From positions 1-64,000 of the forward strand of contig CANPXT010000004.1 of the NCBI GenBank assembly GCA_947586835.1: a DNA stretch of 64,000 nt, in the 5' to 3' direction. Positions 7,390 to 24,219 of the stretch are shown here, one piece after another (position 1 is the stretch's first letter; each line of letters opens with the position of its first letter). A program made the translations under genes and the position numbers. A model generated the notes under the pieces. That model worked only from the letters and a program-made list of their open reading frames with translations. It did not search any database and was not told the origin of the DNA. The stretch comes from an uncultured Alphaproteobacteria bacterium (GTDB lineage Bacteria > Pseudomonadota > Alphaproteobacteria > CAAHEQ01 > UBA3637).

Positions 7390-7390
7390 T

Positions 7391-7855: not shown

Positions 7856-7862
7856 ACTTTTC

Positions 7863-9389
7863 CTATGGAATATATTGATAAGACCAAACTTCCGTGAGAA
7901 TTTCCGTCTGTTTTGTTTTTTGATTTTTTTGTTTTAATGAAGCTCGTAATTCGGCCGTTTTACTTTCCGGCTGAAAATCGAAAAACAATCGCACCGATTG
8001 ATCAATATCATTTCTTTGCACAATCACATTTCTGATTTGCCCGAAATCAACACTGACATCAGGAATTAAATCAGAAACATTTTTCACCTGCTTTAAAACC
8101 GAACCTTTAAAATCAATCACGAATTTAATCCATTTTTCATCAGGCTCGCCGGATACCCCCCCTACCCCACTGCGCGTGGCAATCACTTTGGCTTTCGGAA
8201 AAAGCGATTCATCTTCGGTTGAAATCCAGTGCATACGATATTTAAATGTGCGTTTTTGATTTTTTTTCAATGCCTCATCCGGCCACCAAAAAGCAACAAT
8301 ATTATCATGAATTTCTTTATCGGACGGAATTTCCACCAAATGCACCCGACCACTGCCGAAACCTTCCAGCGGTTCAATCCAAACACTCGGACGTTCTTGA
8401 TAATGTGCTTCCAAATCTTGATAATGATCGGCATTTCGATCTCGTTGCATTAAACCGAATCCTTTAGCATCACCGTCAGAAAACGAACTTAACCGTAATT
8501 GCGATGCATTATCCAACGGACGCCATAGCCATTCACCGTTTTCATTGTGAACCAATAACCCGTCACTGTCGTGCACCTCAAGACGATAATCAAAAAATCT
8601 GTTTTTGGTGTTTTCTCCGAATAAAAACATACTTGTTAACGGAGCAATACCTAATTTTTGAATGGTATCACGCGCATACAAAACGGCAGTCACATCAATT
8701 TTTGTATCGGTTCCCGGTTGAATGAAAAATGCATAAGCACCCGTAACACGCGGGCTGTCCAACAAGGCATAAACGGTTATATTTCTTTGCCGTTTCATGG
8801 GTTTTTTAATCCAAAACTCACGAAAAATCGGAAACTCTTCTCCAATGGCTTCTCCCGTATCAATGGCAAGCCCGCGCGCCGACAATCCGTATTTTTGATT
8901 CTTGCCCAAAGCGCGAAAATAACTGGCACCCAAAAAAGAAATCAACTCATCATAGTAACTGTCGCGATTAAGCGGATAATGCAACCGAAAACCGGCATAA
9001 TCAACAACATCGGGTATATCGGATAACGGCATATCGGCTTTGGTAAAAGCTTTGGAAACATAAGGAATGTAAACAGCTTCATTTCCGACAATCTGATGAA
9101 CACGCACGGCATTTTTATAAATCGAACCGATATGAAAAAATTGCAATTCAAACGGAATGTTTTGATGATACCAAGGACCCTCTTTTCGATCATATCTCAA
9201 AGAACGAAACGTATCATAATCCATTTCGGTTAATTCTTTTGGCAGATTCAATTTTTCTTGCCGATAAGGTTCTTGTGCCAGAGCTTCTGCCGCTTTCTTC
9301 ACTTCTTCAAACGTAAAGGGCGCACCGTAAGAAACAAAAGCCTTACCGATAAAAAAGAACAATCCGATGATGAATAATGTTTTTTTCAT
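7863..9389 (-). CDS. opgG: Periplasmic glucan biosynthesis protein OpgG (MdoG)
   Basis: 508 residues. Residues 1-22 are a signal peptide (hydrophobic 'LFIIGLFFFIG', cleavage near SYG-AP). The mature protein follows the OpgG/OpgD family: 'YDTFRSLRYDR', 'ELQFFHIGSIYK', 'SYFRALGKNQKYGLSARGLAIDTG' region (about 155-180) and 'DSPRVTGAYAFFIQPG' region (about 210-225). The family is needed in the periplasm for making or branching osmoregulated glucans. The first gene of the opgG-unknown-opgH operon; only a weak AAGAG lies before its ATG. A hairpin at 9427-9451 separates it from mscL, so the two probably form separate transcripts. Confidence 0.95.
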   Translation of the reverse strand: MKKTLFIIGLFFFIGKAFVSYGAPFTFEEVKKAAEALAQEPYRQEKLNLPKELTEMDYDTFRSLRYDRKEGPWYHQNIPFELQFFHIGSIYKNAVRVHQIVGNEAVYIPYVSKAFTKADMPLSDIPDVVDYAGFRLHYPLNRDSYYDELISFLGASYFRALGKNQKYGLSARGLAIDTGEAIGEEFPIFREFWIKKPMKRQRNITVYALLDSPRVTGAYAFFIQPGTDTKIDVTAVLYARDTIQKLGIAPLTSMFLFGENTKNRFFDYRLEVHDSDGLLVHNENGEWLWRPLDNASQLRLSSFSDGDAKGFGLMQRDRNADHYQDLEAHYQERPSVWIEPLEGFGSGRVHLVEIPSDKEIHDNIVAFWWPDEALKKNQKRTFKYRMHWISTEDESLFPKAKVIATRSGVGGVSGEPDEKWIKFVIDFKGSVLKQVKNVSDLIPDVSVDFGQIRNVIVQRNDIDQSVRLFFDFQPESKTAELRASLKQKNQKTKQTEILTEVWSYQYIP

Positions 9390-9426
9390 GTTTTACAAAA
9401 CTCTTTTTGCCTTGTCAAAGAGAAAT

Positions 9427-9451
9427 AAAGCCTGATAAGCAATCAGGCTTT
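9427..9451 (-). terminator. Hairpin terminator after mscL
   Basis: AAAGCCTGAT/ATCAGGCTTT-type perfect stem with a short loop between the mscL stop and the opgG start. On the minus strand the tail is 'TTTATTTCTC', so termination may be incomplete. Confidence 0.65.
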
Positions 9452-9462
9452 ACAAAAATTTT

Positions 9463-9939
9463 TTATTTTTTACTCTTTGTTAAATCTGCCGTACAATTCG
9501 GACATTTAATGGCAGCTACGTTAATTTCCGAACAACAAAAAGGACACGTTTTTGTTGTCGGCGCTGCATTTTTTTCGCTTCTGTCCAGCTTTTCTTGAAC
9601 CGTATTCATGGCTTTAATAAGCATAAACACGGCAAAAGCAACAATAATAAAGCTGATCACCGTATTAATAAATAAACCGAAATTAACGGTTACCGCACCG
9701 GCTGCTTGAGCGGCAGCTAACGAATCATACGGAGCTGTGGCATTCGGTCCGTCTTTAATAACGACAAACAAATTGGAAAAATCAACATTACCGAGCAACC
9801 ATCCGATCGGCGGCATAATCACATCTTTTACCAACGAATCGACAATTTTTCCGAAAGCGGCACCAATGATAATACCGACAGCCATGTCGAGCACATTGCC
9901 GCGCATGGCAAATTTTTTAAATTCCAATAAAAAGTTCAT
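9463..9939 (-). CDS. mscL: Large-conductance mechanosensitive channel MscL with C-terminal zinc-ribbon
   Basis: 158 residues. The N-terminus is typical of MscL: '[28 protein letters not shown]' covers the amphipathic helix and pore-lining first span, followed by the conserved '[20 protein letters not shown]'. The second span is about 90-110. The pentameric channel opens in the inner membrane during osmotic downshock. Unlike E. coli MscL, the C-terminus carries a Cys-x2-Cys ... Cys-x2-Cys module (CPFC...CPNC, about residues 135-152), a probable zinc ribbon known in a minority of MscL proteins. Its closeness to opgGH groups osmotic-response functions. Confidence 0.95.
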
Positions 9940-9958
9940 TTTTCTTTCCTTTCATAAA

Positions 9959-10861
9959 TCAGTTAAACAAATGAAACAATTCTTTGTAAGCCAATGAAAG
10001 TCCGATCATAAAATTGCTGCCTTTCTTTTGAGCTTCCCGCGACTTTGCCTGCCGATAAGAGATATACGGACCAAACGTAAAGTTTTTCGTCATATCAACA
10101 TCCATTCGCGCCGTTAAATTCAAATCATATTTTAAATCCGTACCGACATATTTACTGTACGCTAAATATTTTCTGAAATAACCGTCCGTGGACATTTTTA
10201 CTCCTTCTCGAACATCATACTCCAAACGCCAACCGGTTTCAAGTGCGAATTTTGTGGTTCGGTCATCGGAATAAGTAATATCATATTCGCCGACCGCCGC
10301 CAAATATAATTCTTTGATAATATCACCGCTGAACAACTTCGGACCTGTTTTGCCTCGAATAACTTTCATCCGCGGTGCTCCGTCATTGCTGGTGAACTCG
10401 GTTTGATAGGCAATGCTGGCAAAAGGACCTAAATCCATATCCCGAACTTTCATCATTTTATACATATAATCACTGGTCAACAAAATTTCATCTTCATTTT
10501 CCGTTGTTTCACTCGGTTGATTATACGGCTTGATTTTCGTTTTACCATAATTTAAGAATACACTGTTATCCCACCGCATATTTTCGCGTTCGTGTTCCAA
10601 CACAAAATCAAAAATACCATTAATTAATGTTTGACTGTCAGAGTTTAACGCTGACACGGGTGAATTTTGATATTCACCGGCATTATCAACTTCCGTTGAA
10701 GATATTTGTAATCCCAATCGGCGCATATTTGCTCGCCATTGCGGAGCCGTCACAACGGAAACAGCTTCCGATTCGTTTGTTGTCTCTTCAGCTGCAAAAG
10801 CTGATTGTGCAAATAACATACCTCCGACGAGAGTTATGGTGCTTAAAAGTTTTAAATTCAT
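9959..10861 (-). CDS. Predicted outer-membrane beta-barrel protein (DUF3078-like)
   Basis: The start is taken at 10861, where a GAGG site precedes MNLKLLST and a good signal peptide follows (cleavage near AFA-AE); further upstream in-frame codons lack these. The result is 300 residues. The mature protein has alternating aromatic/polar strands, for example 'MRWDNSVFLNYGKTK', 'LGPFASIAYQTEFTS', 'TFGPYISYRQA' and a final aromatic-rich strand ending in Phe-Asn. This suggests an outer-membrane barrel resembling the DUF3078 group; the family name is tentative. It lies 20 bases upstream of mscL on the same strand and diverges from guanine deaminase. Function unknown. Confidence 0.6.
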   Translation of the reverse strand: MNLKLLSTITLVGGMLFAQSAFAAEETTNESEAVSVVTAPQWRANMRRLGLQISSTEVDNAGEYQNSPVSALNSDSQTLINGIFDFVLEHERENMRWDNSVFLNYGKTKIKPYNQPSETTENEDEILLTSDYMYKMMKVRDMDLGPFASIAYQTEFTSNDGAPRMKVIRGKTGPKLFSGDIIKELYLAAVGEYDITYSDDRTTKFALETGWRLEYDVREGVKMSTDGYFRKYLAYSKYVGTDLKYDLNLTARMDVDMTKNFTFGPYISYRQAKSREAQKKGSNFMIGLSLAYKELFHLFN

Positions 10862-10982
10862 TTCATACCTCATTAACTGATTGATTAACACGTGCATATA
10901 AACATATATTGCCGTTAATTGCAAGTTTTTATTGCATTTCAAATTAATTTTTATAAAATAAAACAAGCTGAAAGGATAAAAG

Positions 10983-11432
10983 ATGAAAAATCACATTTAT
11001 TTTTTACAAAAAGCCGTTAAAGAAAGCGCACATTCCGTTCGTATCGGTTGTTCGCCTTTCGGAGCCGTGATTGTAAAAGACGGTATTATTGTTGCCAAAG
11101 CTCATAATCAAGTCATCTTTCATCAAGATCCCACGGCGCATGCAGAAGTATCTTGCATTCGCAAAGCTTGCCGTAAACTGAAAACACACGATTTAAGCGG
11201 TTGCATTTTATATTCATCCTGCGAGCCCTGCCCTATGTGTTTAAATGCTGCCAAATGGGCCAACATTACACAAATATTTTATGCGGCTTCCCGTGATGAT
11301 GCCGATGCCATCGGTTTTCGTGACAGAGTGTTTTATGAGGAATCCGTGGTTTCTTTAAATCACATTGACTTGAAAGATGCCCGTAAAATTATGGATGAAT
11401 GGTTTGCCAAAGCCGATAAAAAACCGTATTAA
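10983..11432 (+). CDS. guaD: Guanine deaminase (CMP/dCMP deaminase fold)
   Basis: 149 residues with the zinc deaminase motifs 'HAEVSCI' (His53, Glu55) and 'PCPMC' (Cys83, Cys86). The C-terminal 'FYAASRDDADAIGFRDRVFYEE' region has the pattern of Bacillus-type guanine deaminase rather than TadA, which should have a different C-terminus and tRNA-binding arginines. It would convert guanine to xanthine in the cytosol. The ribosome site AAAGGA lies before the ATG. It diverges from the barrel gene and converges on rimI with a three-base gap. TadA-like activity cannot be excluded by motif alone. Confidence 0.75.
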   Translation: MKNHIYFLQKAVKESAHSVRIGCSPFGAVIVKDGIIVAKAHNQVIFHQDPTAHAEVSCIRKACRKLKTHDLSGCILYSSCEPCPMCLNAAKWANITQIFYAASRDDADAIGFRDRVFYEESVVSLNHIDLKDARKIMDEWFAKADKKPY

Positions 11433-11435
11433 AGT

Positions 11436-11891
11436 TTAAAAAGTTTTTTCCATGCAAACGGCATCACAAAAACCGGTTTTTGTTTTATAATAATTTTTTC
11501 GTTGTCCGATTTGTCGAAATCCTTTTTTATCATATAAGTTTCGCGCCGCCGTATTCTGAACGGAAACCTCCAAAAATAAGCGATGAACACCTTGTTCGTC
11601 AGCATATCGAAACAAATAATCCAAAAACTTTTCGGCCAATCCCATTCTTCGAAAACACGGATCAACGCACAGTGTTAAAATTTCCATTTCATCGGCAACT
11701 TTCGAACAAACCAATAAAGCTTTTTCATCTATCCACCCGACTGTTGCAGGTAATGATACCAAAGCTTCAAATGATTCTTTCGACCACGGAAAATCAAAGC
11801 TTGTTTGATGCAAAAAAGCTGCTGTTTCACAAAAAGATAACGTTAATAAAACAGGCGTTAAAGAAAGCGGTATTTTATTTTTTTGAAGCAA
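11436..11891 (-). CDS. rimI: Ribosomal-protein-alanine N-acetyltransferase-like GNAT protein
   Basis: 151 residues of the GNAT fold: 'EILTLCVDPCFRRMGLAEKFL' contains the acetyl-CoA-binding R/Q-x-x-G-x-A loop (here RRMGLA), followed by 'LFLEVSVQNTAARNLYDKKGFRQIG', the standard RimI C-terminal pattern. RimI acetylates the N-terminus of ribosomal protein S18. The gene overlaps tsaB by 17 bases, the usual tsaB-rimI pairing, which supports the name. Confidence 0.85.
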   Translation of the reverse strand: MLQKNKIPLSLTPVLLTLSFCETAAFLHQTSFDFPWSKESFEALVSLPATVGWIDEKALLVCSKVADEMEILTLCVDPCFRRMGLAEKFLDYLFRYADEQGVHRLFLEVSVQNTAARNLYDKKGFRQIGQRKNYYKTKTGFCDAVCMEKTF

Positions 11892-12492
11892 GCGTCACCT
11901 CGGCATCTCGCATATAATAAGCAATGGGAGGTAACAAAACCTCTTTATGTGTTTGATAAATTGAAATCATTTGCTCGGCCGGCACGGCAGGAAACGGCAA
12001 CAATGTTACCGATGTGTTTGAAAACACTTCCGGCTTATCCGTTACAATCGGTAAATTCATTTTGATAATTTCATCCGTCTTTAAAATTTGCGGTGTGCCT
12101 GACTTTGATGATTGAAACAATTGTGTATAAAAATCACCGCGTCGCGTGTCCAATGCGACAAGGCAAGGTGTTTGAACATTTTCTGACGCGATATGAAAGC
12201 AAGAAATGCCCGAAAGCTCAATATCAAGTGCCAACGCCAATCCTTTGGCTGCCGCAAGACCGATTCGAACACCCGTAAACGATCCGGGTCCTACCGCTGC
12301 CACCAGTGCGGATAATTCATGAATTTCACGATGACTTTTTTCAAATAATTCTTGAATACGCGACATTAAAACTTCACTTTGTCCGCGTAAAACAGGAGCG
12401 CCGTAAGAAGCTAAAATCCGTTGTTCTTCTGCCAAAGCCACAGATAAGCATTCGCCCGATGTATCTATTGCCAAAACTAAATTTTTATTCAT
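11875..12492 (-). CDS. tsaB: tRNA threonylcarbamoyladenosine biosynthesis protein TsaB
   Basis: 205 residues with the ASKHA-fold motifs 'VLAIDTSGECLSVAL' at the N-terminus and 'AAVGPGSFTGVRIGLAAAKG' (about 65-85). TsaB works with TsaD and TsaE to place the threonylcarbamoyl group on A37 of ANN-decoding tRNAs. tsaD is not in the window. AAGGAAA precedes the ATG. It is translationally overlapped with rimI downstream. Confidence 0.93.
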   Translation of the reverse strand: MNKNLVLAIDTSGECLSVALAEEQRILASYGAPVLRGQSEVLMSRIQELFEKSHREIHELSALVAAVGPGSFTGVRIGLAAAKGLALALDIELSGISCFHIASENVQTPCLVALDTRRGDFYTQLFQSSKSGTPQILKTDEIIKMNLPIVTDKPEVFSNTSVTLLPFPAVPAEQMISIYQTHKEVLLPPIAYYMRDAEVTLASKK

Positions 12493-12620
12493 AAAATTAT
12501 TTCCTTAAACAAGATGAACAAAATTTACCACTTTTTTTGCGGGAAAGCAAGCCTGATTTTAAGGAAAATAAGCGAAAATAAAAACAAGAGAAGATATGGA
12601 ACAATATCGAATAAAAAAAA

Positions 12621-12696
<76 letters not shown>

Positions 12697-12707
12697 ACTG
12701 TTTGACT

Positions 12708-12736
12708 TTTATACACAACATTTAAAAAAAAAGCAA
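12708..12736 (-). promoter_or_regulatory. Promoter of tRNA-Thr
   Basis: On the minus strand, TTGCTT (12736-12731), 17 bases, TATAAA (12713-12708), about 11 bases before the mature 5' end. The -35 hexamer is identical to that of tRNA-Glu. Confidence 0.75.
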
Positions 12737-12920
12737 GTATTTTTTTTAAATTTACCGAATTTTTAAAAATATTTTTTATCTGTGCCCTCGTATGCTTCTT
12801 TCCAAAGCAATCTTTAAACCCGATCTTCATTTATTAAGGTGATTGTTCAATTAATCTATCCGTTGAATCGATACAATATAACATTTTCTTTAAATACGCT
12901 TTGAAAACCGATTAGAATCG

Positions 12921-13631
12921 CTAAAAGTCGCTTTGATTTAACGATGCTTCGGGCTTAAACGGCTCATCCGGCTCTGACTTAATAATTTTCTCTAACAGTT
13001 CTTTGTTATCTTGGGCGGACGTTTTATTTTTAGATTGATTTCCCTTCTCTTCTTTGGCGCTTTCTTTCTTTTCTTCTTTCGCTTCAGCGGAAACCTTCGC
13101 TTCTGCCGCATTTGCCGCCGCGGAAGCACCCATAATCAGCTTCTCCGTTACTTGATCGACCAACTCTGTATTTAACAAAACGGGATTTTGATTCAAATAC
13201 CATAAAATGGTTTCACCGCGTGCATCGGTGGCCATAATATCAACACCGGAATTCAAAATTAACTGCATAATGCTAACACTCGGCGCATGATAGGCTGCAA
13301 AAAATGCCAACGGAATTTCTTTGGGCGCACCCGGAATCGGATAATCCGTATTCGACACAAACACATCTACCGGTAGTTTGGAATTTTCAATTAAGGCTTT
13401 AACAATGGAACTGTTTCCTCGCAAAATAGCCAGCTGATAAACATTTCCTCCGCATTTGGGACGAATATTTAAATTAACGTTATTGTTAATCAGCTTCATC
13501 ACGTCTTCTTCTGTACGCGCCGTTCGAATCACTTGTTGAAGCGGTGAATAAGAACATTCTTTCACTGCACCGAAAGCAATCGTATTAACCAAACAAGCAG
13601 CTGTTGCTATAACTATTGATATTTTATTCAT
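12921..13631 (-). CDS. Secreted ankyrin-repeat-like protein
   Basis: 236 residues. A signal peptide (1-21, ends near AFG-AV) is followed by ankyrin-like helical pairs: 'VYQLAILRGNSSIVKALIEN', then 'FFAAYHAPSVSIMQLILNSGVDIMATDARGETILWYL' region (about 115-152), whose 'DARGETIL' matches the ankyrin turn and first helix. The last 70 residues are low-complexity Lys/Glu/Ala/Ser and probably disordered. Ankyrin modules bind proteins; here the partner would be periplasmic. A strong AAGGAG precedes the ATG. It is 11 bases downstream of lolA on the same strand, so it is probably cotranscribed with ftsK-lolA. About 220 bases of AT-rich sequence between it and tRNA-Thr hold no gene that I can support. 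Confidence 0.68.
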   Translation of the reverse strand: MNKISIVIATAACLVNTIAFGAVKECSYSPLQQVIRTARTEEDVMKLINNNVNLNIRPKCGGNVYQLAILRGNSSIVKALIENSKLPVDVFVSNTDYPIPGAPKEIPLAFFAAYHAPSVSIMQLILNSGVDIMATDARGETILWYLNQNPVLLNTELVDQVTEKLIMGASAAANAAEAKVSAEAKEEKKESAKEEKGNQSKNKTSAQDNKELLEKIIKSEPDEPFKPEASLNQSDF

Positions 13632-13642
13632 GGAATCACTCC

Positions 13643-14281
13643 TTATCTCTTTTTATACGGATTATGGAATAAAAATGTTTTTTTGTCAATAGGAACGTTA
13701 AATTGTGTATCAAAAAGTGAAACGGTTGACTTCACTCCTTCCATATCGACAACATCCCATTGTTTTAATTGCATACTGTCTTTATCAATAATAAGCGTTA
13801 AGCTGCCCAATTCCCGCGCATCTTTTTTAATGGCCGTCACATAATATTCATCTAACACCGTTCTGACATCGGTAACCAGAAATTCGGGATCGCTGAATTT
13901 GAGTTTTTCTTTTAAAATTAAGCTGACGGGCGTTTGCTGCAAACGAAAATAATTCACTTCTTTTAAATCTTTGTCATGATAAATCAAATAGCCGTTATGC
14001 GCATAAAATTCCAGCGGTGAACCTTTTTCATAAACCAGACGCATTTCCCCCGGACGCGATAAATAAAGCTCTCCGGTTTGCAAATCATCTTGCATTTTCG
14101 AGTTAAATTGCGCAAACTTGGCTTTTAAAGTTTTAATTTTATTATAAGCCGATTCGACTTTTTGCAAAATTTCGCGATTTTGCGGTGTATCAATTCGTTT
14201 ATCAATATCTGCCCGTGCCGAAACAGACACACCGAAAACAAAACTTGAAATCAATAAGCCGTATAAAAAACTTTTTTTCAT
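13643..14281 (-). CDS. lolA: Outer-membrane lipoprotein carrier protein LolA
   Basis: The start is set at 14281 (GGAG site, then a signal peptide ending ARA-D), removing an N-terminal extension that would run into ftsK. The 212-residue protein has the LolA core: 'AYNKIKTLKAKFAQFN', 'QTGELYLSRPGEMRLVYEKGSP', 'DKDLKEVNYF' and a C-terminal 'TLIIDKDSMQLKQWDVVDMEG'. It carries lipoproteins across the periplasm from LolCDE to the outer membrane. It follows ftsK by 16 bases, an arrangement common in proteobacteria (ftsK-lolA). Confidence 0.9.
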   Translation of the reverse strand: MKKSFLYGLLISSFVFGVSVSARADIDKRIDTPQNREILQKVESAYNKIKTLKAKFAQFNSKMQDDLQTGELYLSRPGEMRLVYEKGSPLEFYAHNGYLIYHDKDLKEVNYFRLQQTPVSLILKEKLKFSDPEFLVTDVRTVLDEYYVTAIKKDARELGSLTLIIDKDSMQLKQWDVVDMEGVKSTVSLFDTQFNVPIDKKTFLFHNPYKKR

Positions 14282-14297
14282 TTGTTCTCCTTTAACT

Positions 14298-16673
14298 TTA
14301 TGCATTATCCGTCGGCACAATAATTTCCCGTTTACCGGAAATGTTCGGCTTGGATATAACCCCTTCCGCTTCCATTCTGTCAATTAAATCGGCCGCTTTA
14401 TTATATCCGATTCGCAAAACGCGTTGTACATAACTGATGGTCGGTTTTTTGTCACGCAAAACAATGGCCACCGCCTTATCATATAAATCCCCCGATTCGG
14501 ATTCGCCAGTCCCGCTAAAGCTGATATTTGTCGAATCGTTTGCGGCATCGGGATCAGCAGTCACGGCTTCCACATATTCAGGCTCTGCCTGCATTTCCCA
14601 ATGATGCACCACGCGTTCCACATCGTTATCACTGACAAACGGTCCGTGAATGCGCTGCGGTGCGGAACCGGCCGGCATAAAGAGCATATCGCCCTTACCC
14701 AGTAACCGCTCGGCACCCGGCTCATCTAAAATGGTGCGCGAATCGATTTTACTGCGCACTTGGAAAGACATGCGTGACGGAAAATTCGATTTAATGGTGC
14801 CCGTAATCACATCAACCGACGGCCGTTGCGTTGCCAAAATTAAGTGAATACCGACCGCCCGCGCCATTTGCGCCAATCGTTGAATTAAAGGATCAACTTC
14901 TTTCCCGCATCTGCCCATTAAATCGGCCATTTCATCAACAATAATCACAATATACGGAATCGGCGTTAAATCAAACTGCTGTTCTTCAAAAATCGGCCGT
15001 CCCGTTTCGGGATCAAACCCGGTTTGAACCCTTCGTGTTAATTCTTTGCCTTCACGCGCCGCTTCCGCCAATTTTTGATTATAGCCGGAAATGTTACGCA
15101 CCCCCAACTGACTCATGGAACGATATCTGTCTTCCATTTCGCGCACTGCCCACTTTAATGCCACAACGGCCTTTTCCGGCTCGACAACAACCGGCGTTAA
15201 TAAATGCGGTATGCGATTATAAACCGATAATTCAACCATTTTCGGATCAACCATAATCATGCGACATTCTGCCGGCGTAAACCGATATAACAGCGACAGA
15301 ACCATGGTATTAATGGCAACCGATTTACCCGAACCCGTGGTACCGGCAACCAGCAAATGCGGCATTTTTGCCAAATCGGCAAAAACGGGCGCCCCACCGA
15401 TATTTTTCCCCAAGATAATGGGCAAAGCGCCGCTGTTTGTTTGAAAATTCACGTTTTCGATCATTTCCCGAATATAAACCGTTTCCCGTTGTTTATTCGG
15501 CATTTCGATACCGATGTAACACGTTCCGGGAATAACGGCTATTCGCACCGATTCCACACTCATTTTCATGGCAATATCATCTGCCAGCGAAATCACGCGC
15601 GAGGCCTTAATCCCGTCAGCCGGCAAAAATTCGTAAAGCGTTACCACCGGCCCGGGATGCGCCTGAATCACATTTCCTCTCACGTTAAACTGCAGCAACA
15701 CTTTTTCCAACGCACGAGAAACGGTGTCCATTGCCTCTTTGGAAAGCCCTTGAACATTACTGATCTTAACGGGATCTAACAAATCGGATGCCGGTAATTC
15801 CAACGTATTTTTTTCATTTGCTTCTTCATCAATTTCCGTTCTTTGCGAAGTTCGTTTCGAATCGGCACGCGTTTTCTGCAAACTGACGGGTTCCGTCGGC
15901 TTGATTTCCGATGTTTTTGATATCGGCGTTTCACGCTCACCGTTTAAAAAGGCGAACGAGGGCTCCACGCGTTCAACGGGCTCTGTTTTTTCTTTCTTTT
16001 TAAACAAGAAACGGCGTTTTTCTTCGGGTTGTGCTTTTGCTGTTTCCGCCTCATCCGATACTCTTTCGATAACGGCAGACGACACAGACGCCGCTACGGT
16101 CGCTTTTTGTTTTACATGAACATTTTTCACCATTTTCTTTAATTTATCCGTCGGAACGGCACGCACGGTTGCTGCCGCTTTTCGCGATAACAATATGACC
16201 GGCACTTTTAAAGAGAAAATCAGACATAACACCACAACACCGTAAGCAATAAAGCGATAAACACTTGATTGCAACACAAAAAAGCGATTAAAGAAATATC
16301 CGACATAACCGCCCTTGCCGGCTTTAAACCACGCGGAATCCAACGATGTTTGCAAATCACTTAACAACCAAACGGCCGTTAAAAAGGCGCATAAAAACAT
16401 CAAAAACCGAAAAGCCACCCATTTTGTCCGACGCCACAAGAACAATCCGAACACAATGAAAGCAATCGGAACAACAAAAGCCATCACGCCGAAAAGTTGC
16501 AATAACAAATCGGCCGTTAAGGCGCCGAACGCCCCGCACCAATTTTTAATGCCGAACGTGCCGGCAGCATTGAACGATGAATCGGTTACCTGATATGTCA
16601 CACACGCGACAAAAGCAAATAAGCCGAACAAAATTAACAATAAAGCAAATAATTTTCGTAAAAAGTTTTTCAT
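14298..16673 (-). CDS. ftsK: DNA translocase FtsK
   Basis: 791 residues. Four to five N-terminal membrane spans (within residues 1-180), then a short charged linker (about 190-300), then the motor: Walker A 'GTTGSGKS' near 443-450, 'VIIVDEMADLM' Walker B, and 'ATQRPSVDVITG'. The C-terminal winged-helix gamma domain contains 'SYVQRVLRIGYNKAADLIDRME'-type sequence, which reads KOPS sites and activates XerCD. The protein pumps chromosome DNA through the closing septum. An AGAGGA site precedes the ATG. It heads the ftsK-lolA-ankyrin run. Confidence 0.97.
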   Translation of the reverse strand: MKNFLRKLFALLLILFGLFAFVACVTYQVTDSSFNAAGTFGIKNWCGAFGALTADLLLQLFGVMAFVVPIAFIVFGLFLWRRTKWVAFRFLMFLCAFLTAVWLLSDLQTSLDSAWFKAGKGGYVGYFFNRFFVLQSSVYRFIAYGVVVLCLIFSLKVPVILLSRKAAATVRAVPTDKLKKMVKNVHVKQKATVAASVSSAVIERVSDEAETAKAQPEEKRRFLFKKKEKTEPVERVEPSFAFLNGERETPISKTSEIKPTEPVSLQKTRADSKRTSQRTEIDEEANEKNTLELPASDLLDPVKISNVQGLSKEAMDTVSRALEKVLLQFNVRGNVIQAHPGPVVTLYEFLPADGIKASRVISLADDIAMKMSVESVRIAVIPGTCYIGIEMPNKQRETVYIREMIENVNFQTNSGALPIILGKNIGGAPVFADLAKMPHLLVAGTTGSGKSVAINTMVLSLLYRFTPAECRMIMVDPKMVELSVYNRIPHLLTPVVVEPEKAVVALKWAVREMEDRYRSMSQLGVRNISGYNQKLAEAAREGKELTRRVQTGFDPETGRPIFEEQQFDLTPIPYIVIIVDEMADLMGRCGKEVDPLIQRLAQMARAVGIHLILATQRPSVDVITGTIKSNFPSRMSFQVRSKIDSRTILDEPGAERLLGKGDMLFMPAGSAPQRIHGPFVSDNDVERVVHHWEMQAEPEYVEAVTADPDAANDSTNISFSGTGESESGDLYDKAVAIVLRDKKPTISYVQRVLRIGYNKAADLIDRMEAEGVISKPNISGKREIIVPTDNA

Positions 16674-16870: not shown

Positions 16871-19800
16871 CTAGAACTTGTACTTCAAGTTGGCAAGCCC
16901 TGTATGATTGGTGTAATCGCCTTTGAACAAACCTTCGTATTCGAGAGCGACTTCCGCTTTCCGATTGATATCCAACCCGATGCGGGCGCCGACTTCAATG
17001 CCGAAGCGATCCATATTCTCGGTTTTCACTTCATAGACACTGCCGTTCAGCAAATTGACACGCATTTTGGTATCGGGTTCCATGAAGTCATACGTTAAAG
17101 CAGCTCTCAATTCGGGATACCATGACAATGTCGGCGACAAGGTGTATCCGATGGTATATTGCGCACCCAAGATACCCGTTAAAGTGCTTCCGTCAGCTGA
17201 ACCGACGTTTTGACCGACCGAATCGGTATAGGCATGTTGTTTCGTATAGATATACCGTGCGCCGATTTCAGGTTTAATCACGCCTGTTGCCCAGTCATCG
17301 TTAACATAGGGGCCCATTTTCTGACCGATCATGAACTGAGCACCGAAAGCATCGACATTATAATTAGCTTTCACGTTATGATTGAACACTTTTTTGTCTT
17401 CATCATATTTCGAGCGTGTATACATCGCCAACCAGTTCGCATAGAAGCGATTCGGATTATAATTTCCGTAAATCATACCGGTATGGGATTTAATATCCGT
17501 ATCGCGTTGCACCGATTCGCCGCTTGAATTTGTGTAAGCATAGGCAATACCTAAGCGAACCGCCTCATTGACATGACCGTCAAACCCGACGGAAACGCCG
17601 CGATTATCCATATCCCAGCCCTTCCGGACATCATATTTTGATTTACCGTACAAGCCTTGAATCCACAAATTGGAGTGATGCCGCGGGAAACGATAGAAGC
17701 GTTTGCCCCGATGAATATAACCCGTGCGATCCATAGATTCGTAGAAACGATCGCTCACAATAGAGGCCAACCGTTGCGTAATTTCGGTTGCATGGGCTTG
17801 AATGAGCGGTGACACATCAGGCGCCAAGCCGTCCAAAGCATCTATTTGCTCCGAATCGGCTTCAAACAATCTTTGTTGAATATCGTAAGCATCGCTGTTT
17901 TGGGTGATATCATCGCCGTCAAGCCAGCCGTCATTGGTACTCACTTCATTTTCATCGCAACCCGGGCAAGCATTTTCGCCCTCACGCGAAATTTTATACC
18001 AACCGATGTCCTTCCCTTCAACGGCTTCGACCCGATAGTTTTTATGGTCGGGAATATTACTGAATTGAGTGGTCACATTGCCATCCAAGATTTGATATTC
18101 TTTACTTGTGCCTTTTTTCAAAGTACCCGAGCTCAAAACGACATCCAAGGTATTATTACCGTTAATATTAATATTATTTGCGGAAATTTTACCATGCGTA
18201 CCGTCAACTTTTTTCTTCACGTGAGTTTTAATGGTGGAATTATCCGAAATGGTAACCGTATTGCCATACATCACACCGGCACCTTCCACATCACTGCCGC
18301 CCAAGTCAACCGTTGAGCCGGTAATATTCACCGCACCGACTTTACGATCTCCGGTTACACCGGCACCGGCGTTAATACCTTGATGCAATTGCAAATTACT
18401 GTTTTTAATATTCATTGTACCGGCATTATAAATATCTTGTTTTTGATCGAACAAGGTATGCAACTCACCGGACGGACGCGGTGTTGTGCTGTCGGGATAA
18501 GGTTTATAATTCAAGTCGACCTGATCATCGGCACTTTCAATATTTACAACACCGCCCACGTCGTTATAAAGGTTTTGACCGACCGTAGCGTTATTGCCTT
18601 TAATGGTGACGCCACTGCCTTTAATGGTTAAATCCTGCTCATTATAGATACCGCCGCCGTTACCGCTTGCCGTATTACCGGAAATGGTGGTATTTCCTTC
18701 AATGGTCACATTGCTTCGATTGCTATTCGACGTTGTGGCATTCACGTTTGCCAAACCGCCGCCCTTTGCAGCCGTATTGCCGGAAATTACAGTGTCGATA
18801 ATATTGGTTTTTGCCGTACCGTTTGAGCTGCGAGCCATAATACCGCCGCCGCTGGCAGCAGCCGTATTGCCGGAAATGGTGGCACGGGTTAACGTGGTTG
18901 TACCGTTCGAGCCGATGGCACCGCCGTCTGTTGACGAAGAGTTGCCCGTAAAGGTATCGTCTGTAGAGTTCCATATACCGTTATCGTTATGAACGGCACC
19001 GCCGGCAACGGAATTTGCGCCCAAAACCTGATTGCCCGTAAATGTATTGCCTTCGGTGGTTAAGGTCGGATTTTCGCCGTCTCTGGCCGATATATCTTTA
19101 TAGATAACAATTGCACCGCCGGCACCTGTGTTGCTCGTTGCGGAAGCTGTTGCCGTATTTTCCTTAAATTGAGAATTTTTAATGGTCGCCGAACCTTTTT
19201 TCCAAATAGAAACAGCGCCACCATTGACCGCCTTGTTTTGATAAAACGTTGTATTATTGTCAATAGACTTAATTGAACCGTTTTCGATATAAATGGCACC
19301 GCCGCTTCCTGTTTTTGCCTCGTTACCTTGGAATTGAACACCGGAAATGGCACCACCGATTGTACCGTAATTATAAATGGCACCGCCGGCAGTTTCGGCA
19401 ACATTGTTTACAAATTTTAAGTTTTTAAGGTCAGAAATCGTACCGCTGTTATAAATGGCACCGCCACGTTTTGCCTGATTTTCCTCAAATTGATCAAAAA
19501 CAGTGCCGTAACCATCAATTGAAGTGATTTTTCCCCCTGTTTCAACAGAAATGGCACCGCCGTCTTCTTTTGCCTTATTATTATAAAACACTGTTTCATT
19601 AATACTGTCAACCGTACCGCCGATAATCAACGCACCACCGTTTTTCTCGGTTGCTTCGTTTCTGACAAAGAAATCGTGATTAAACGTGTTACCGGTACTT
19701 CCGTTTCCGTCGCTAACTTTGCCGGCAATATTAATTGCACCACCACCACGCGCTTTGTTGTCAAAATATATATTACTCTTACTTTCTAATGTTCCTTTTG

Positions 19801-20365
19801 CGCCGACATAAATAGCCCCCGGTGCAATATTTGATGAATTATTATTAACGGAGCTTGCAAAAACACTTTCTTCAATAACCAATTTAGCATTTCCTGTACT
19901 ACCTGCATAAAGTGCCGGATCATTAGAACCGTTCGGATGATCGCTTCCCTCATTGGTCCAGCCGGTTACTGCGTCATAGCTGCTACTGCTTCCGGCTTCT
20001 GTTGCATTTTTCCACTCTTTATAATTTTCATTTTGAAAATATCCGACATTTTTAACGGTTAACTGAGGCGTATCGCTATTTTCTCCTTGAACATGTAACG
20101 TACCTTTTAAATTTCTGAAATGATTGCTCGAATCAATTGTTAAAGAACCTTTTTTTAACGTTAATTTCGGATCATCTTTAATATCTGAATCTGCCGTGAG
20201 TGTAACGATTTTAGGTGTTTCACCATTATTGTTCAATGCATTAACGGCGCCTGCAATTGTTTTTTCATCATTCTCTTCAACGCCTTCGACTGCAGCTAAA
20301 GCAATACACGGCAGTATAAAAACCGTTGTACCTAACAAGAGAAAATTAAAAGTGTTTGAGCGCAT
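16871..20365 (-). CDS. Large autotransporter with Pmp-like GGAI repeats
   Basis: The start is set at 20365, because GGAGG then lies five bases before it; the ORF could begin four codons earlier. About 1164 residues. A signal peptide (1-25, ends near ALA-AV) leads to a long passenger predicted to be a beta-helix. It contains many copies of GGAI/GGAL/GGGI, often paired with N-x-A or FxxN motifs, the pattern of chlamydial polymorphic outer-membrane proteins. A linker with a close cysteine pair ('ACPGC') precedes the translocator beta-barrel, about the last 270 residues from 'SNLWIQGLYG' to the terminal aromatic YKF. Type V secretion to the cell surface is expected; adhesion is the usual role. 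It neighbours two repeat-rich membrane proteins, forming a surface-protein block. Confidence 0.9.
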   Translation of the reverse strand: MRSNTFNFLLLGTTVFILPCIALAAVEGVEENDEKTIAGAVNALNNNGETPKIVTLTADSDIKDDPKLTLKKGSLTIDSSNHFRNLKGTLHVQGENSDTPQLTVKNVGYFQNENYKEWKNATEAGSSSSYDAVTGWTNEGSDHPNGSNDPALYAGSTGNAKLVIEESVFASSVNNNSSNIAPGAIYVGAKGTLESKSNIYFDNKARGGGAINIAGKVSDGNGSTGNTFNHDFFVRNEATEKNGGALIIGGTVDSINETVFYNNKAKEDGGAISVETGGKITSIDGYGTVFDQFEENQAKRGGAIYNSGTISDLKNLKFVNNVAETAGGAIYNYGTIGGAISGVQFQGNEAKTGSGGAIYIENGSIKSIDNNTTFYQNKAVNGGAVSIWKKGSATIKNSQFKENTATASATSNTGAGGAIVIYKDISARDGENPTLTTEGNTFTGNQVLGANSVAGGAVHNDNGIWNSTDDTFTGNSSSTDGGAIGSNGTTTLTRATISGNTAAASGGGIMARSSNGTAKTNIIDTVISGNTAAKGGGLANVNATTSNSNRSNVTIEGNTTISGNTASGNGGGIYNEQDLTIKGSGVTIKGNNATVGQNLYNDVGGVVNIESADDQVDLNYKPYPDSTTPRPSGELHTLFDQKQDIYNAGTMNIKNSNLQLHQGINAGAGVTGDRKVGAVNITGSTVDLGGSDVEGAGVMYGNTVTISDNSTIKTHVKKKVDGTHGKISANNININGNNTLDVVLSSGTLKKGTSKEYQILDGNVTTQFSNIPDHKNYRVEAVEGKDIGWYKISREGENACPGCDENEVSTNDGWLDGDDITQNSDAYDIQQRLFEADSEQIDALDGLAPDVSPLIQAHATEITQRLASIVSDRFYESMDRTGYIHRGKRFYRFPRHHSNLWIQGLYGKSKYDVRKGWDMDNRGVSVGFDGHVNEAVRLGIAYAYTNSSGESVQRDTDIKSHTGMIYGNYNPNRFYANWLAMYTRSKYDEDKKVFNHNVKANYNVDAFGAQFMIGQKMGPYVNDDWATGVIKPEIGARYIYTKQHAYTDSVGQNVGSADGSTLTGILGAQYTIGYTLSPTLSWYPELRAALTYDFMEPDTKMRVNLLNGSVYEVKTENMDRFGIEVGARIGLDINRKAEVALEYEGLFKGDYTNHTGLANLKYKF

Positions 20366-20482
20366 ATTATCCTCCATTCAAATAAATTGCCCGTTCATTA
20401 TTTCTATGAGTATGCTTATATTAACACGTCTGAAAGCAAAAAGCAAGAAAAAAAATAACTTTCTGTCAGCACTTTTATTCAT

Positions 20483-20580: not shown

Positions 20581-20666
20581 AAAAACACCCGAACCGTTTC
20601 CGATTCGGGTGCTTTTGCATACACTCTTAATGATTATTCATAATCTTTCCCAACACCACCGATTGA
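20581..20666. repeat. Duplicated 3' end, copy 1 (terminator plus C-terminal codons)
   Basis: 20581-20653 is identical to 22391-22463, then after one mismatch identity continues to 20666/22476. The repeat spans the terminator, the spacer and the last codons of both paralogous genes (C-terminus IGG-V/I-GKDYE). It documents a segmental duplication or recent gene conversion. Confidence 0.9.
20586..20611 (-). terminator. Terminator of the 511-residue repeat protein gene
   Basis: On the minus strand an 11-base-pair stem (one U-G pair) with a GAAA tetraloop, followed by five T. Identical copy at 22396-22421. Confidence 0.88.
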
Positions 20667-22169
20667 GCCTCTGCTTCTTTCTTCCGGTTCTTCCGGCGGC
20701 TCAGGTGTTATGTTTGTTCCTGCTTTTTCCAAAATTCCCCCTGATTCTACCTGTGGTGCCGCCGGCACTGTCTTTACCGCCGGCGCTGTCTGTCCCCCCG
20801 TTGAACTTCCATCGGTGTAACCACCGCCACTGAGACCTTGGTCTACCCGTGGTGTCGCCGGCGCTGTATTCTGTACACCACCGCCACTGCGACCGGGTTC
20901 TAACCCTCCCCCTCCGGAACTGCCCACATGATCCCCGTAATCAGGATAATCATTCGGTGCAGGACTTACCTCTGTCACCGGCGGATCAACCGGTGCCGGT
21001 TCAACCGGTTCCGGTGTTTGCTCTGACTGGGGCGGGTTTATCCCTGTCTCCGGTGGAAGACCCTGTTCCGGTGTCGGTGCCGGTGCCGGTTCCGGCGCAT
21101 TCTGCGTCGGGTTATCCGGATTTGAGGTATCTATATTCGGTATCGTCGGTTTCTGTTCCGGTGCCGGATCCGGTGCCGGTGCAGGGTTTATCTCTGTCTT
21201 CGGTGGCAGATCTTGTCCCGGTTTCTGTTCCGGTGCCGGTGCCGGCGCATTCTGCGTCGAGCTATCCGGCTTTGACGTATCTATATTCGGTATCGTCGGT
21301 TTCTGTTCCGGTGTCGGCGTTTGTTGCTCTGACTGGGGCGGGTTTATCTGTGTCCCCGGTGCCGGTGCCGTATCCGGCTTTTGCCCCGTGTTATCCTGCG
21401 TGTTATCCGGTGTTTTATCCGTGGTTTTATCCGTGGTTTTATCCGTGGTTTTATCCGTTGTTTTATCCGGAGTCTTCTGATCTTGAGTCGATTTATCGGC
21501 AACTTTTGTCTCGTTTGTTGTTTGTGCCGCCTTTTGAGCTGCCGCTTTTTTCTTCTTCTTATTATGCCGATGCACCAAATAAGCAATCAAACCGCCGGCT
21601 ACCGCCAAACCGCCGATAACCGCCGTTAACCATTTCCAGTTTCTGCTCCACCAGCTGCCTTTCTCTTCATCTTTCTTTTTCTTTTCTTCTTCTTTCTTCT
21701 TTTGTTGAACAATTTGTGAGGGCGTTTTATCAAAATACATTTTATTACTGCCGTTCGGACCGATACCCTGACCTTGAATGTGGAACGGTTTTGCCTCTTC
21801 AACAACCTGCCCTTTATCATCAACCTTGGTGGCGTTTCGATATTGAATCTCGGAAATTAAAGCTTCGGCCGTATAAGGCTTTCCCGTGTTCGGATCAACC
21901 AATTTTTCACCGGTTTCAACATTAACAAACCCCTCGCACAATCCGCCATGCTTTGCGGCATATTTTCGAATGTTGTCAAATGCTTTGTTACGGTCAACCC
22001 CGGGCAAACTTTTTTTGACTTCAGTTTGCTTTTTATTATCATAACCGCTATATTTCTGGTGTTGAACACCCGTTGTTGAGACCTGAACAGGAGTGTTTTT
22101 CTTGGTAGCCGTCGTTTCGGCATTTTTCTGCGCTTTTGCCTCTTCAGCGTTTTTTTCTGTATCAGCCAT
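20634..22169 (-). CDS. Repeat-rich single-span membrane protein, paralog A
   Basis: 511 residues; family not recognised. Order: charged N-terminus without signal peptide; a small domain at about 52-105 with 'YAAKHGGLCEGF' and 'DPNTGKPYT'; a Lys/Glu coiled stretch; one membrane span after SWWSRNWKWL (about 185-205) flanked by HRHNKKKKK; then about 300 residues of Pro/Thr/Asp/Gln-rich repeats, including TTDK units and two copies of a roughly 45-residue block around EQKPTIPNIDTS; a glycine-rich region with DYPDYGDH; and the C-terminus GSIGGVGKDYE. The same order occurs in the neighbour at 22444-23580. A GGAG site supports the start. The extended repeats suggest a stalk or surface-exposed or periplasm-spanning region, but orientation is uncertain because both sides of the span are basic. 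Confidence 0.8.
   Translation of the reverse strand: MADTEKNAEEAKAQKNAETTATKKNTPVQVSTTGVQHQKYSGYDNKKQTEVKKSLPGVDRNKAFDNIRKYAAKHGGLCEGFVNVETGEKLVDPNTGKPYTAEALISEIQYRNATKVDDKGQVVEEAKPFHIQGQGIGPNGSNKMYFDKTPSQIVQQKKKEEEKKKKDEEKGSWWSRNWKWLTAVIGGLAVAGGLIAYLVHRHNKKKKKAAAQKAAQTTNETKVADKSTQDQKTPDKTTDKTTDKTTDKTTDKTPDNTQDNTGQKPDTAPAPGTQINPPQSEQQTPTPEQKPTIPNIDTSKPDSSTQNAPAPAPEQKPGQDLPPKTEINPAPAPDPAPEQKPTIPNIDTSNPDNPTQNAPEPAPAPTPEQGLPPETGINPPQSEQTPEPVEPAPVDPPVTEVSPAPNDYPDYGDHVGSSGGGGLEPGRSGGGVQNTAPATPRVDQGLSGGGYTDGSSTGGQTAPAVKTVPAAPQVESGGILEKAGTNITPEPPEEPEERSRGSIGGVGKDYE
21100..21300. repeat. Two imperfect long repeats inside paralog A
   Basis: The block encoding EQKPTIPNIDTS followed by TQNAP and a Pro/Ala-rich stretch occurs twice (around 21106-21160 and 21237-21310). 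Boundaries are approximate. Confidence 0.6.
21411..21470. repeat. 12-base tandem repeats encoding TTDK
   Basis: About five successive units of the type ttttatccgtgg (minus strand codes Thr-Thr-Asp-Lys, with two Pro variants). Near-identical units can change number by replication slippage. Confidence 0.8.
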
Positions 22170-22390
22170 ATCATTCTCCTTGCGTAAGTGGGTTAATTTG
22201 TTTGTTTATAAGTTAATTATACACCAAAAAAGAGGGTGAATCAACTATTTTTTCACTATTTTTCAAAAAATGTATTTTTTATGGGTTTCTCTATCCTTAA
22301 AACCGACCGATGAAAACACTGCCCCGATAACGGTTCGTTTTTTTTTAAAAATTGAGACAAAATAATTTAAACAACACCGATACAGACAAA

Positions 22391-22476
22391 AAAAACACCC
22401 GAACCGTTTCCGATTCGGGTGCTTTTGCATACACTCTTAATGATTATTCATAATCTTTCCCAATACCACCGATTGA
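22391..22476. repeat. Duplicated 3' end, copy 2
   Basis: Partner of 20581-20666, offset 1810 bases; 73 bases identical, then one mismatch (t for c at 22464) and identity to 22476. Confidence 0.9.
22396..22421 (-). terminator. Terminator of the 378-residue repeat protein gene
   Basis: Same 11-base-pair stem and GAAA loop as the terminator at 20586-20611, with a T run on the minus strand. Confidence 0.88.
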
Positions 22477-23580
22477 CGGTCTATCTCTGGGAGGTTCCTC
22501 TGTGTCATGGCCTGAACCACCGGTAATATTATCCCCCGGTATCTTACCGCCGCCGGTGCCTTCATTACCGCCGCCGGTGCCTTCGTTACCACCGCCGGTG
22601 CCTTCATTACCGCCGCCGGTGCCTTCGTTACCACCGCCGGTGCCTTCGTTACCACCGCCGGTGCCTTCGTTACCGCCGCCGGTGCCTTCATTACCACCAC
22701 CGGTGCCTTCATTACCGCCGCCGGTGCCTTCGTTACCACCGCCGGTGCCTTCGGAACCTGTGTTGCCACCGATACCCGGTTCTAACCCTCCCTGTCCGGA
22801 ACTGCCACCATGATCCCCGTAATCAGGATAATCACCTCCCGGGTTATCCGGATCTTTGCCCGGGTCCGGATCTTTGCCCGGATCCGGATCTTTGCCCGGG
22901 TCCGGATCTTTGCCCGGGTCCGGATCTTTGCCCGGATTATCAGGATCTTTACCCGGGTTGTCCGGATCTTTATCGCCACCCGGCGTCGGCGTTACCTGCG
23001 TATCAGGCGTTTTATCAATTTGACGATTGCTCTTTTTCTTCTTATTCCGATGCACCAACCACAAAACTAAACCGGTAACGGCGCCTAATCCGGCAATAAG
23101 TGTCGGCACAAACCATCCCCAGTTCCTGCTCCACCAACTGGCTTTCTTTTCTTCTTCTTTCTTCTTCGCTTCCTCAGTCGCCGGCTGACCGATAGCCGTT
23201 AATTTCCGATCGCCCACTTGAAGCGTCGGCGTTTTCACTGCCGTTGCCATGTGAGACAGTGACAACTCGCCCAATTGTTGCAAAAATGCATCAGGCGTGG
23301 GAGCCTTCCCCGTTTTCGGATCAATCAACGGATTGCCGGTGCGTAAATCGGTAAACCCTTCCAAAACACCGTTGTGCTTGGCAGCATATTCATCTAACGC
23401 CGCTTTTAATTGGGCTTGATCAGACGGACTCCATGTGCGAATGGATTGTTCGGCTTGAGAACCATATACAAATCCGGTAAACATGCCGTTTTTCTTGACG
23501 TTTTCAGCATATTCCGTCATAATTACTTTAAATTTTTCCGGAACCTTCTTTAAAGATGGATCATTTTTTAAATCAGCCAT
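22444..23580 (-). CDS. Repeat-rich single-span membrane protein, paralog B
   Basis: 378 residues; family not recognised. The N-terminal part holds two related units: 'YAENVKKNGMFTGFVYG' (about 29-45) and 'YAAKHNGVLEGFTDLRTG' with 'LIDPKTGKAPT' (about 68-100), the second matching paralog A. One span follows SWWSRNWGW (about 150-175), with HRNKKKKS after it. Next come PDPGKD hexapeptide repeats, a DYPDYGDHGGSS segment also present in A, then nine GGGNEGT heptapeptides plus a SEGTGGG variant, and the C-terminus PSIGGIGKDYE. The GGAGG site fits the start. The C-terminal region is very acidic and glycine-rich. A and B clearly arose by duplication, while their repeat regions diverged. A surface or envelope role is inferred from composition and the autotransporter neighbour. 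Confidence 0.8.
   Translation of the reverse strand: MADLKNDPSLKKVPEKFKVIMTEYAENVKKNGMFTGFVYGSQAEQSIRTWSPSDQAQLKAALDEYAAKHNGVLEGFTDLRTGNPLIDPKTGKAPTPDAFLQQLGELSLSHMATAVKTPTLQVGDRKLTAIGQPATEEAKKKEEEKKASWWSRNWGWFVPTLIAGLGAVTGLVLWLVHRNKKKKSNRQIDKTPDTQVTPTPGGDKDPDNPGKDPDNPGKDPDPGKDPDPGKDPDPGKDPDPGKDPDNPGGDYPDYGDHGGSSGQGGLEPGIGGNTGSEGTGGGNEGTGGGNEGTGGGNEGTGGGNEGTGGGNEGTGGGNEGTGGGNEGTGGGNEGTGGGNEGTGGGKIPGDNITGGSGHDTEEPPRDRPSIGGIGKDYE
22540..22755. repeat. 21-base tandem repeats encoding GGGNEGT
   Basis: Nine units differing mainly at a few third positions (att/gtt, gcc/acc), plus one degenerate unit reading SEGT at the upstream end. In frame, so copy-number change alters length by seven residues without frameshift. 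Confidence 0.92.
22840..22965. repeat. 18- to 21-base tandem repeats encoding PDPGKD
   Basis: Six or seven units encoding Pro-Asp-(Asn)-Pro-Gly-Lys-Asp inside paralog B; adjacent units are nearly identical at DNA level. Confidence 0.85.
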
Positions 23581-23844: not shown

Positions 23845-24219
23845 ATGAAAAAATTATTAACTCTCACCGCCGTTTGCGCTTTATTCGCTACCGGCGCACA
23901 AGCACAGTTTGTCGGAGGAGCTCAAGCCCCCGCCGGCGGGTTTAAAGGCCCGGGTTTGAGCGTTTCTACCGTTGCTCAGGCGTTGGATATGCACGATGAT
24001 TCGCCCGTCGTCTTGCAAGGAACCATCGAACAAAACTTGGGCGATGAAAAATATCTCTTTAAAGACGCAACCGGTTCCGTCATTGCCGATATTGATAATA
24101 AATATTGGGCAGGTCAAACCGTTACACCCGAAAATACCGTCGAAATTTCAGGGACCGTCGATAAAGAGTTTATGGAAAAAACAGAAATCGATGTGAAAAG
24201 TTTACGAATCGTTAAATAA
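23845..24219 (+). CDS. Periplasmic YgiW/YdeI-family OB-fold stress protein
   Basis: The start is set at 23845, where AGGAGGT lies four bases upstream and a clear signal peptide begins (MKKLLTLTAVCALFATGAQA, 20 residues). The mature part, about 104 residues, matches the bacterial OB-fold (BOF) family: 'STVAQALDMHDDSPVVLQGTI', 'YLFKDATGSVIADID', 'NTVEISGTVDKEFMEKTEIDVKSLRIV' in the usual order. Relatives (YgiW, YdeI, VisP) are linked to hydrogen peroxide, cadmium, acid or antimicrobial peptide stress. It is a single-gene unit with its own terminator. The exact ligand is unknown. Confidence 0.88.
   Translation: MKKLLTLTAVCALFATGAQAQFVGGAQAPAGGFKGPGLSVSTVAQALDMHDDSPVVLQGTIEQNLGDEKYLFKDATGSVIADIDNKYWAGQTVTPENTVEISGTVDKEFMEKTEIDVKSLRIVK

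What the first reader, a model, noticed from the sequence alone, without database searches (positions are those of the whole stretch)
20634..23580. Two paralogous repeat proteins built on an unrecognised N-terminal domain
Both genes encode the same order: a small domain with YAAKH-x-G-x2-EGF and DP-x-TGK, the span preceded by SWWSRNW, a variable tandem-repeat region, DYPDYGDH and the C-terminus IGG-(V/I)-GKDYE. Paralog B shows a second, diverged copy of the domain. I know no named family with this layout. It may be a lineage-specific surface or periplasm-spanning system.
Basis: partly seen in the sequence, partly recalled or inferred. Interest (0 to 1): 0.68.

Follow-up and report, generated by a model that had tools for sequence, protein, structure and literature searches.

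The report
Genus-specific single-pass membrane protein pair
Two neighbouring genes of a gut alphaproteobacterium encode members of an undescribed, genus-specific family in which one tryptophan-rich membrane anchor is joined to many different front ends; the most likely reading, not yet shown, is that they are delivered by the cell's type IV secretion machine.

Summary
Proteins B (22444-23580, minus, 378 aa) and A (20634-22169, minus, 511 aa) share an N-terminal domain, a WWSRNW-TM-basic module, repeat-rich tails and C-terminal motifs. Both are real genes: orthologues lie in the same gene order in related species, with dN/dS about 0.1-0.3 over the N-domains. No Pfam, NCBIfam, PHROG or PDB relative was found.

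Two corrections. (1) DYPDYGDH and IGG(V/I)GKDYE are not an ancestral layout. They sit in DNA tracts shared between A and B in this strain only; one (86 bp, 98.8%) runs through the stop codon and terminator. Orthologues end differently. (2) The family-defining unit is the membrane module: it occurs in all 10 held genomes of the genus, on proteins with unrelated N-terminal regions (including ankyrin repeats), and is nearly absent elsewhere.

Mechanism is inferred. No export signal is visible, the TM is moderately hydrophobic with a basic C-side, and every genome carries a chromosomal VirB/VirD4-type secretion system. I favour secreted transmembrane effectors (about 0.4) over inner-membrane envelope proteins (about 0.35). 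A surface or periplasm-spanning role is neither shown nor excluded.

The parts
22444..23580 (-). protein B, 378 aa
   Evidence: ORF; orthologues in G007, G008, G009; dN/dS 0.16-0.32 over its first 130 codons
20634..22169 (-). protein A, 511 aa
   Evidence: ORF; orthologues in G007, G008, G009; dN/dS 0.12-0.29 over 98 codons of its domain
21708..21998 (-). N-terminal domain of A
   Evidence: AlphaFold2 block means 81-93 over fragment residues 11-90
23269..23412 (-). N-terminal domain of B (copy matching A)
   Evidence: score 112 against at most 46 in 2000 shuffles
23425..23535 (-). possible diverged half-copy of the domain in B
   Evidence: marginal, 2 of 2000 shuffles reach its score
22990..23163 (-). 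WWSRNW-TM-basic module of B (TM at 23053-23109)
   Evidence: profile E 2.2e-24; hydropathy
21534..21680 (-). WWSRNW-TM-basic module of A (TM at 21573-21629)
   Evidence: profile E 1.5e-20; hydropathy
22847..22935 (-). 18-bp tandem repeat (DPDPGK-type units) in B's tail
22544..22753 (-). 21-bp x 10 tandem repeat (EGTGGGN units) in B's tail
21391..21469 (-). 12-bp tandem repeat (TTDK units) in A's tail
21034..21317 (-). 150-bp x 1.9 tandem repeat in A's tail
20581..20666 (-). 3' tract of A (IGGVGKDYE, stop codon, terminator-like hairpin), 98.8% identical to the tract of B
22391..22476 (-). 3' tract of B (IGGIGKDYE, stop codon, terminator-like hairpin)
20883..20952 (-). DYPDYGDH tract of A, 88.6% identical at DNA level to that of B
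22765..22834 (-). DYPDYGDH tract of B
16871..20377 (-). PMP-type autotransporter, conserved downstream neighbour
   Evidence: PF03797 E 2.7e-32 and PF02415; same neighbour in G001, G005, G008, G009
23845..24219 (+). BOF-family gene, conserved upstream neighbour
   Evidence: PF04076 E 8.1e-29

Best explanation
Shown by sequence: A and B belong to a fast-evolving, mosaic protein family confined almost entirely to one genus of small-genome gut Alphaproteobacteria. The family is defined by a module (aromatic W-x-RNW motif, one moderately hydrophobic TM helix, a basic cluster, and in most members a short coiled-coil-like stretch) that usually lies 65-150 residues before the C-terminus (about 200-310 in A and B of this strain) and is joined to different N-terminal regions. 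The tails of A and B are low-complexity and partly homogenised by local DNA exchange. Inferred: they are transmembrane effectors made without a Sec signal, recognised by the conserved chromosomal VirB/VirD4-type T4SS through their C-terminal region, and inserted by the module into a membrane of another cell.
For: Module in all 10 genus genomes, 1-8 matches each at E<=1e-4, against 1 of 33 other genomes of the family. N-terminal regions differ between members and include ankyrin repeats. Every genus genome tested has VirB4 and VirD4, and 8 of 9 VirB10; the G000 locus also has two VirB8, VirB9 and VirB11. No N-terminal signal sequence is visible in A or B. TM hydropathy is lower than in 11 native anchors (median 2.07 against 2.42, p 0.003), as reported for T3SS/T4SS membrane effectors (PMC6110835). 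The C-side flank is more positive than the N-side in 37 of 41 members. C-termini are enriched in Ser/Asn (p 5e-5).
Against: Secretion rests on co-occurrence and anatomy only. No module gene lies in the T4SS loci fetched (profile scan of all loci). VirB4 is in 39 of 40 family genomes while the module is almost genus-restricted, so the two do not track each other. A cytoplasmic C-terminus with one TM implies N-out in the bacterium, which is awkward; Rickettsia single-pass effectors are predicted mostly N-in/C-out (PMC12981334). The native anchors were hand-picked and the module proteins are related, so the p values are rough. No eukaryotic partner is known.
Confidence: 0.4

Rival explanations
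1. Inner-membrane anchored envelope proteins of the bacterium: the N-terminal domain is cytoplasmic and the disordered Pro/Asp/Gly-rich tail (coiled coil in paralogues) lies in the periplasm, perhaps spanning it or touching the wall. This is.
For: One TM plus a long Pro- or Gly-rich acidic tail; weak profile resemblance of paralogues to FtsL-like, HemX and TolA proteins, all below curated cut-offs.
Against: The 15 residues after the TM are strongly basic (net +6 in B, +7 in A), which disfavours their translocation. No periplasmic, peptidoglycan-binding or TonB-type domain was found.
Confidence: 0.35
2. Accessory or co-regulated partners of the neighbouring PMP-type autotransporter, for example an assembly, anchoring or variable-surface partner.
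For: Same neighbours in G000, G001, G005, G008 and G009; in G001 the module gene ends a few bases before the autotransporter start.
Against: Most module proteins of the genus lie elsewhere in the genome without an autotransporter beside them. In the window a terminator-like hairpin separates A from the autotransporter.
Confidence: 0.15
3. Not real genes: chance frames in GC-rich repeats.
For: Low-complexity repeats open several overlapping frames.
Against: dN is well below dS in both N-terminal regions, gene order is conserved, and ribosome-binding-site-like sequences precede both ATG codons.
Confidence: 0.01

Closest known systems
Transmembrane effectors of type IV secretion systems (Legionella, Coxiella, Brucella, Rickettsia)
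   Same: No visible Sec signal, one TM of intermediate hydrophobicity, C-terminal tail often over 70 residues, ankyrin-repeat relatives, T4SS in the genome (PMC12981334, PMC6110835, PMC11602083)
   Different: No secretion shown; one shared TM module across many members; no sequence match to a named effector for A or B
C-terminal sorting signals (LPXTG, PEP-CTERM)
   Same: Short motif, TM and basic cluster in that order on many different proteins (from general knowledge)
   Different: No signal peptide in A or B, and a long tail follows the basic cluster
TonB/TolA-type periplasm-spanning proteins
   Same: One TM and a long Pro-rich stretch
   Different: The TM lies at residues 158-199 behind a folded N-terminal domain, and no TonB or TolA C-terminal domain was found

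Membership tests
T4SS transmembrane effectors | A T4SS with coupling protein is encoded in the genome | tested here: met
T4SS transmembrane effectors | No cleavable Sec signal at the N-terminus (usual, not universal) | tested here: met
   By inspection of A and B: the first 40 residues are hydrophilic; SignalP could not be run
T4SS transmembrane effectors | TM segment of intermediate hydrophobicity | tested here: inconclusive
   Lower than 11 hand-picked native anchors, simple hydropathy only
T4SS transmembrane effectors | C-terminal translocation signal | tested here: inconclusive
   C-termini enriched in Ser/Asn; no defined signal for this system is known
T4SS transmembrane effectors | T4SS-dependent translocation into another cell | not testable with these tools
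   needs an experiment
TonB/TolA-type periplasm-spanning proteins | N-terminal TM with a short cytoplasmic N-tail | tested here: not met
   TM starts at residue 158 in B and 181 in A
TonB/TolA-type periplasm-spanning proteins | TonB or TolA C-terminal domain | tested here: not met
   no such Pfam or NCBIfam match in A or B
LPXTG or PEP-CTERM sorted surface proteins | N-terminal signal peptide and TM at the extreme C-terminus | tested here: not met
   No signal sequence seen; about 200 (B) and 312 (A) residues follow the TM
U-box-like E3 ligases (considered because of the DP-x-TGKPYTAEAL pattern) | U-box sequence profile | tested here: inconclusive

The most novel reading that the evidence does not exclude
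The WWSRNW-TM-basic-coil module is a portable C-terminal export-and-anchoring unit that marks many otherwise unrelated proteins of one gut genus for delivery by its type IV secretion system into a membrane of another cell.
Probability: 0.25. Interest if true: 0.75.

Novelty: new variant of a known kind. Interest (0 to 1): 0.5.

Why it matters
If the reading is right, gut Alphaproteobacteria with small genomes carry a set of transmembrane effectors recognisable by one shared module, which would make their interaction with other cells testable. Even without that, the work shows that the striking shared ends of the two proteins reflect recent DNA exchange, and replaces them with a module that does define a family.

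Tried and rejected
Pfam, NCBIfam and PHROG scans of A and B gave nothing above curated cut-offs. A PDB sequence search found nothing below E 0.2. Foldseek against PDB and BFVD had no hit with E <= 0.001, and VIA-align 2 gave Z 2.7 at best; this does not show that the fold is new. A U-box link, suggested by the DP...TGKPYTAEAL pattern, gave hhalign probability 1.8%. Viral contigs and plasmids held no relative of B's N-terminal region. A T3SS or flagellar export gate was not found. The model of B was of low confidence (mean pLDDT 54.8) and was not used. Literature searches found no description of this family, within the limits of the library. A first attempt to hand in this report was malformed and not accepted.

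Full report
What is there. The window lies in a 1.32 Mb MAG, 83% complete. The closest named relative found is an uncultured Alphaproteobacteria MAG, isolate Lapin-024__bin64. Proteins B (22444-23580, minus) and A (20634-22169, minus) lie in the order FtsK - autotransporter - A - B - BOF - permease. The same order is seen in G008, and autotransporter, A, B, BOF and permease are colinear in G009. In G001 and G005 two diverged module genes occupy the place beside the autotransporter. The G007 contig ends inside A, so the autotransporter could not be seen there.

Are they genes? Yes. The first 130 codons of B differ between species with dN 0.05-0.08 and dS 0.16-0.33, the domain of A with dN 0.07-0.22 and dS 0.58-1.0. 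The permease at the same locus has dN 0.01 and dS 0.37 between G000 and G009, so A and B evolve quickly but under constraint.

The N-terminal domain. A and B clearly share it (score 112 against a best of 46 in 2000 shuffles). By single-sequence search it is found only in four species; a G001 protein at the same locus aligns remotely. AlphaFold2 predicts the A domain well (fragment mean pLDDT 74.3, block means 81-93 over residues 11-90); B is poorly predicted. No known fold stood out, which leaves the question open. The half-copy at the start of B is marginal.

The C-terminal motifs are not an ancestral layout. The GKDYE ends sit in an 86-bp tract, 98.8% identical between A and B, that runs through the stop codon into a terminator-like hairpin; the DYPDYGDH blocks sit in a 70-bp tract, 88.6% identical; the TM region is only 71.6% identical. 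The 3' tract occurs exactly twice in the window, and neither motif's DNA occurs in loci of other species fetched. In G009, A and B share a different block, PSYDGG...AGNDNKGPS, again at about 91% DNA identity. I infer repeated local exchange (gene conversion) between the paralogues; a recent copy of the 3' end would look the same.

The module. A profile of the W-x-RNW-TM-basic region finds members in every genus genome. With an extended profile all ten genus genomes are hit, with 1-8 matches each at E <= 1e-4, against one of 33 other genomes of the family; in 385 genomes of the class five weak further hits appear, which may be chance. Members differ in their N-terminal regions: long helical proteins, ankyrin repeats (L080, L070), a Gly-rich type (L005), and a type seen in several species (L024, L075, L077, L078, L079). 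Most have a coiled-coil-like stretch after the basic cluster; A and B have repeats there instead.

Mechanism. No Sec signal is visible in A or B. The 15 residues after the TM are more positive than those before it in 37 of 41 members, which predicts a cytoplasmic tail; but the N-terminal regions, up to about 1400 residues, have no evident means to cross the inner membrane. One way out is that the TM is not meant for the bacterial inner membrane. The genomes carry a T4SS: VirB4, VirD4 in two copies, a giant protein ending in a VirB10-type domain, and in the G000 locus two VirB8, VirB9 and VirB11. VirB4 is present in 39 of 40 family genomes. Published work on T4SS membrane effectors fits the anatomy in part: intermediate hydrophobicity (PMC6110835), few TMs and long tails (PMC12981334), a C-terminal signal facing the cytoplasm (PMC11602083). 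Rickettsia single-pass effectors are instead predicted mostly N-in/C-out, so topology does not decide. The step from co-occurrence to secretion is inference; I put it at about 0.4.

Limits. Charge, hydropathy and C-terminal counts use related proteins, so they are not independent; the native anchors and the background C-termini were hand-picked; the hydropathy energy scale was a simplified one from memory. Searches covered the held genomes only.

Noticed in passing
L098 (G000:C12:15000-34000), 7243-14478: VirB10-type TrbI domain at the end of a 2411-aa protein otherwise built of beta-flower-like (PF21785/PF21784) repeats, inside a locus with two VirB8, VirB9 and VirB11.
   Followed up: partly
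L099 7284-9467 and L100 6905-9136: Two different VirD4-like coupling proteins at separate places in each genus genome tested.
   Followed up: partly
window 40837-41919, minus: 360-aa protein with a repeated Trp-rich stretch (SWFSWLRNSMLGRTFGL / GWFWGFFKNSMIGRWFGL) and a charged low-complexity rest; not identified.
   Followed up: no
window 16871-20377, minus: Autotransporter with Chlamydia-type PMP repeats in a gut alphaproteobacterium.
   Followed up: no
window 20634-22169 against G008 and G009: dS of A's domain (0.76-1.0) is two to three times that of B, the permease and the autotransporter barrel (0.2-0.37), suggesting recombination of A with a more distant allele.
   Followed up: partly
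L070 2539-5238: A module paralogue with an HExxH-like stretch (RHELRHLVNS) plus weak ankyrin repeats; a possible peptidase, not tested.
   Followed up: no
L079 52-2013, L075 4101-6080, L083 2905-4155: Ankyrin-type repeat proteins without the module lie near module genes in several genomes (Pfam match for L079).
   Followed up: no
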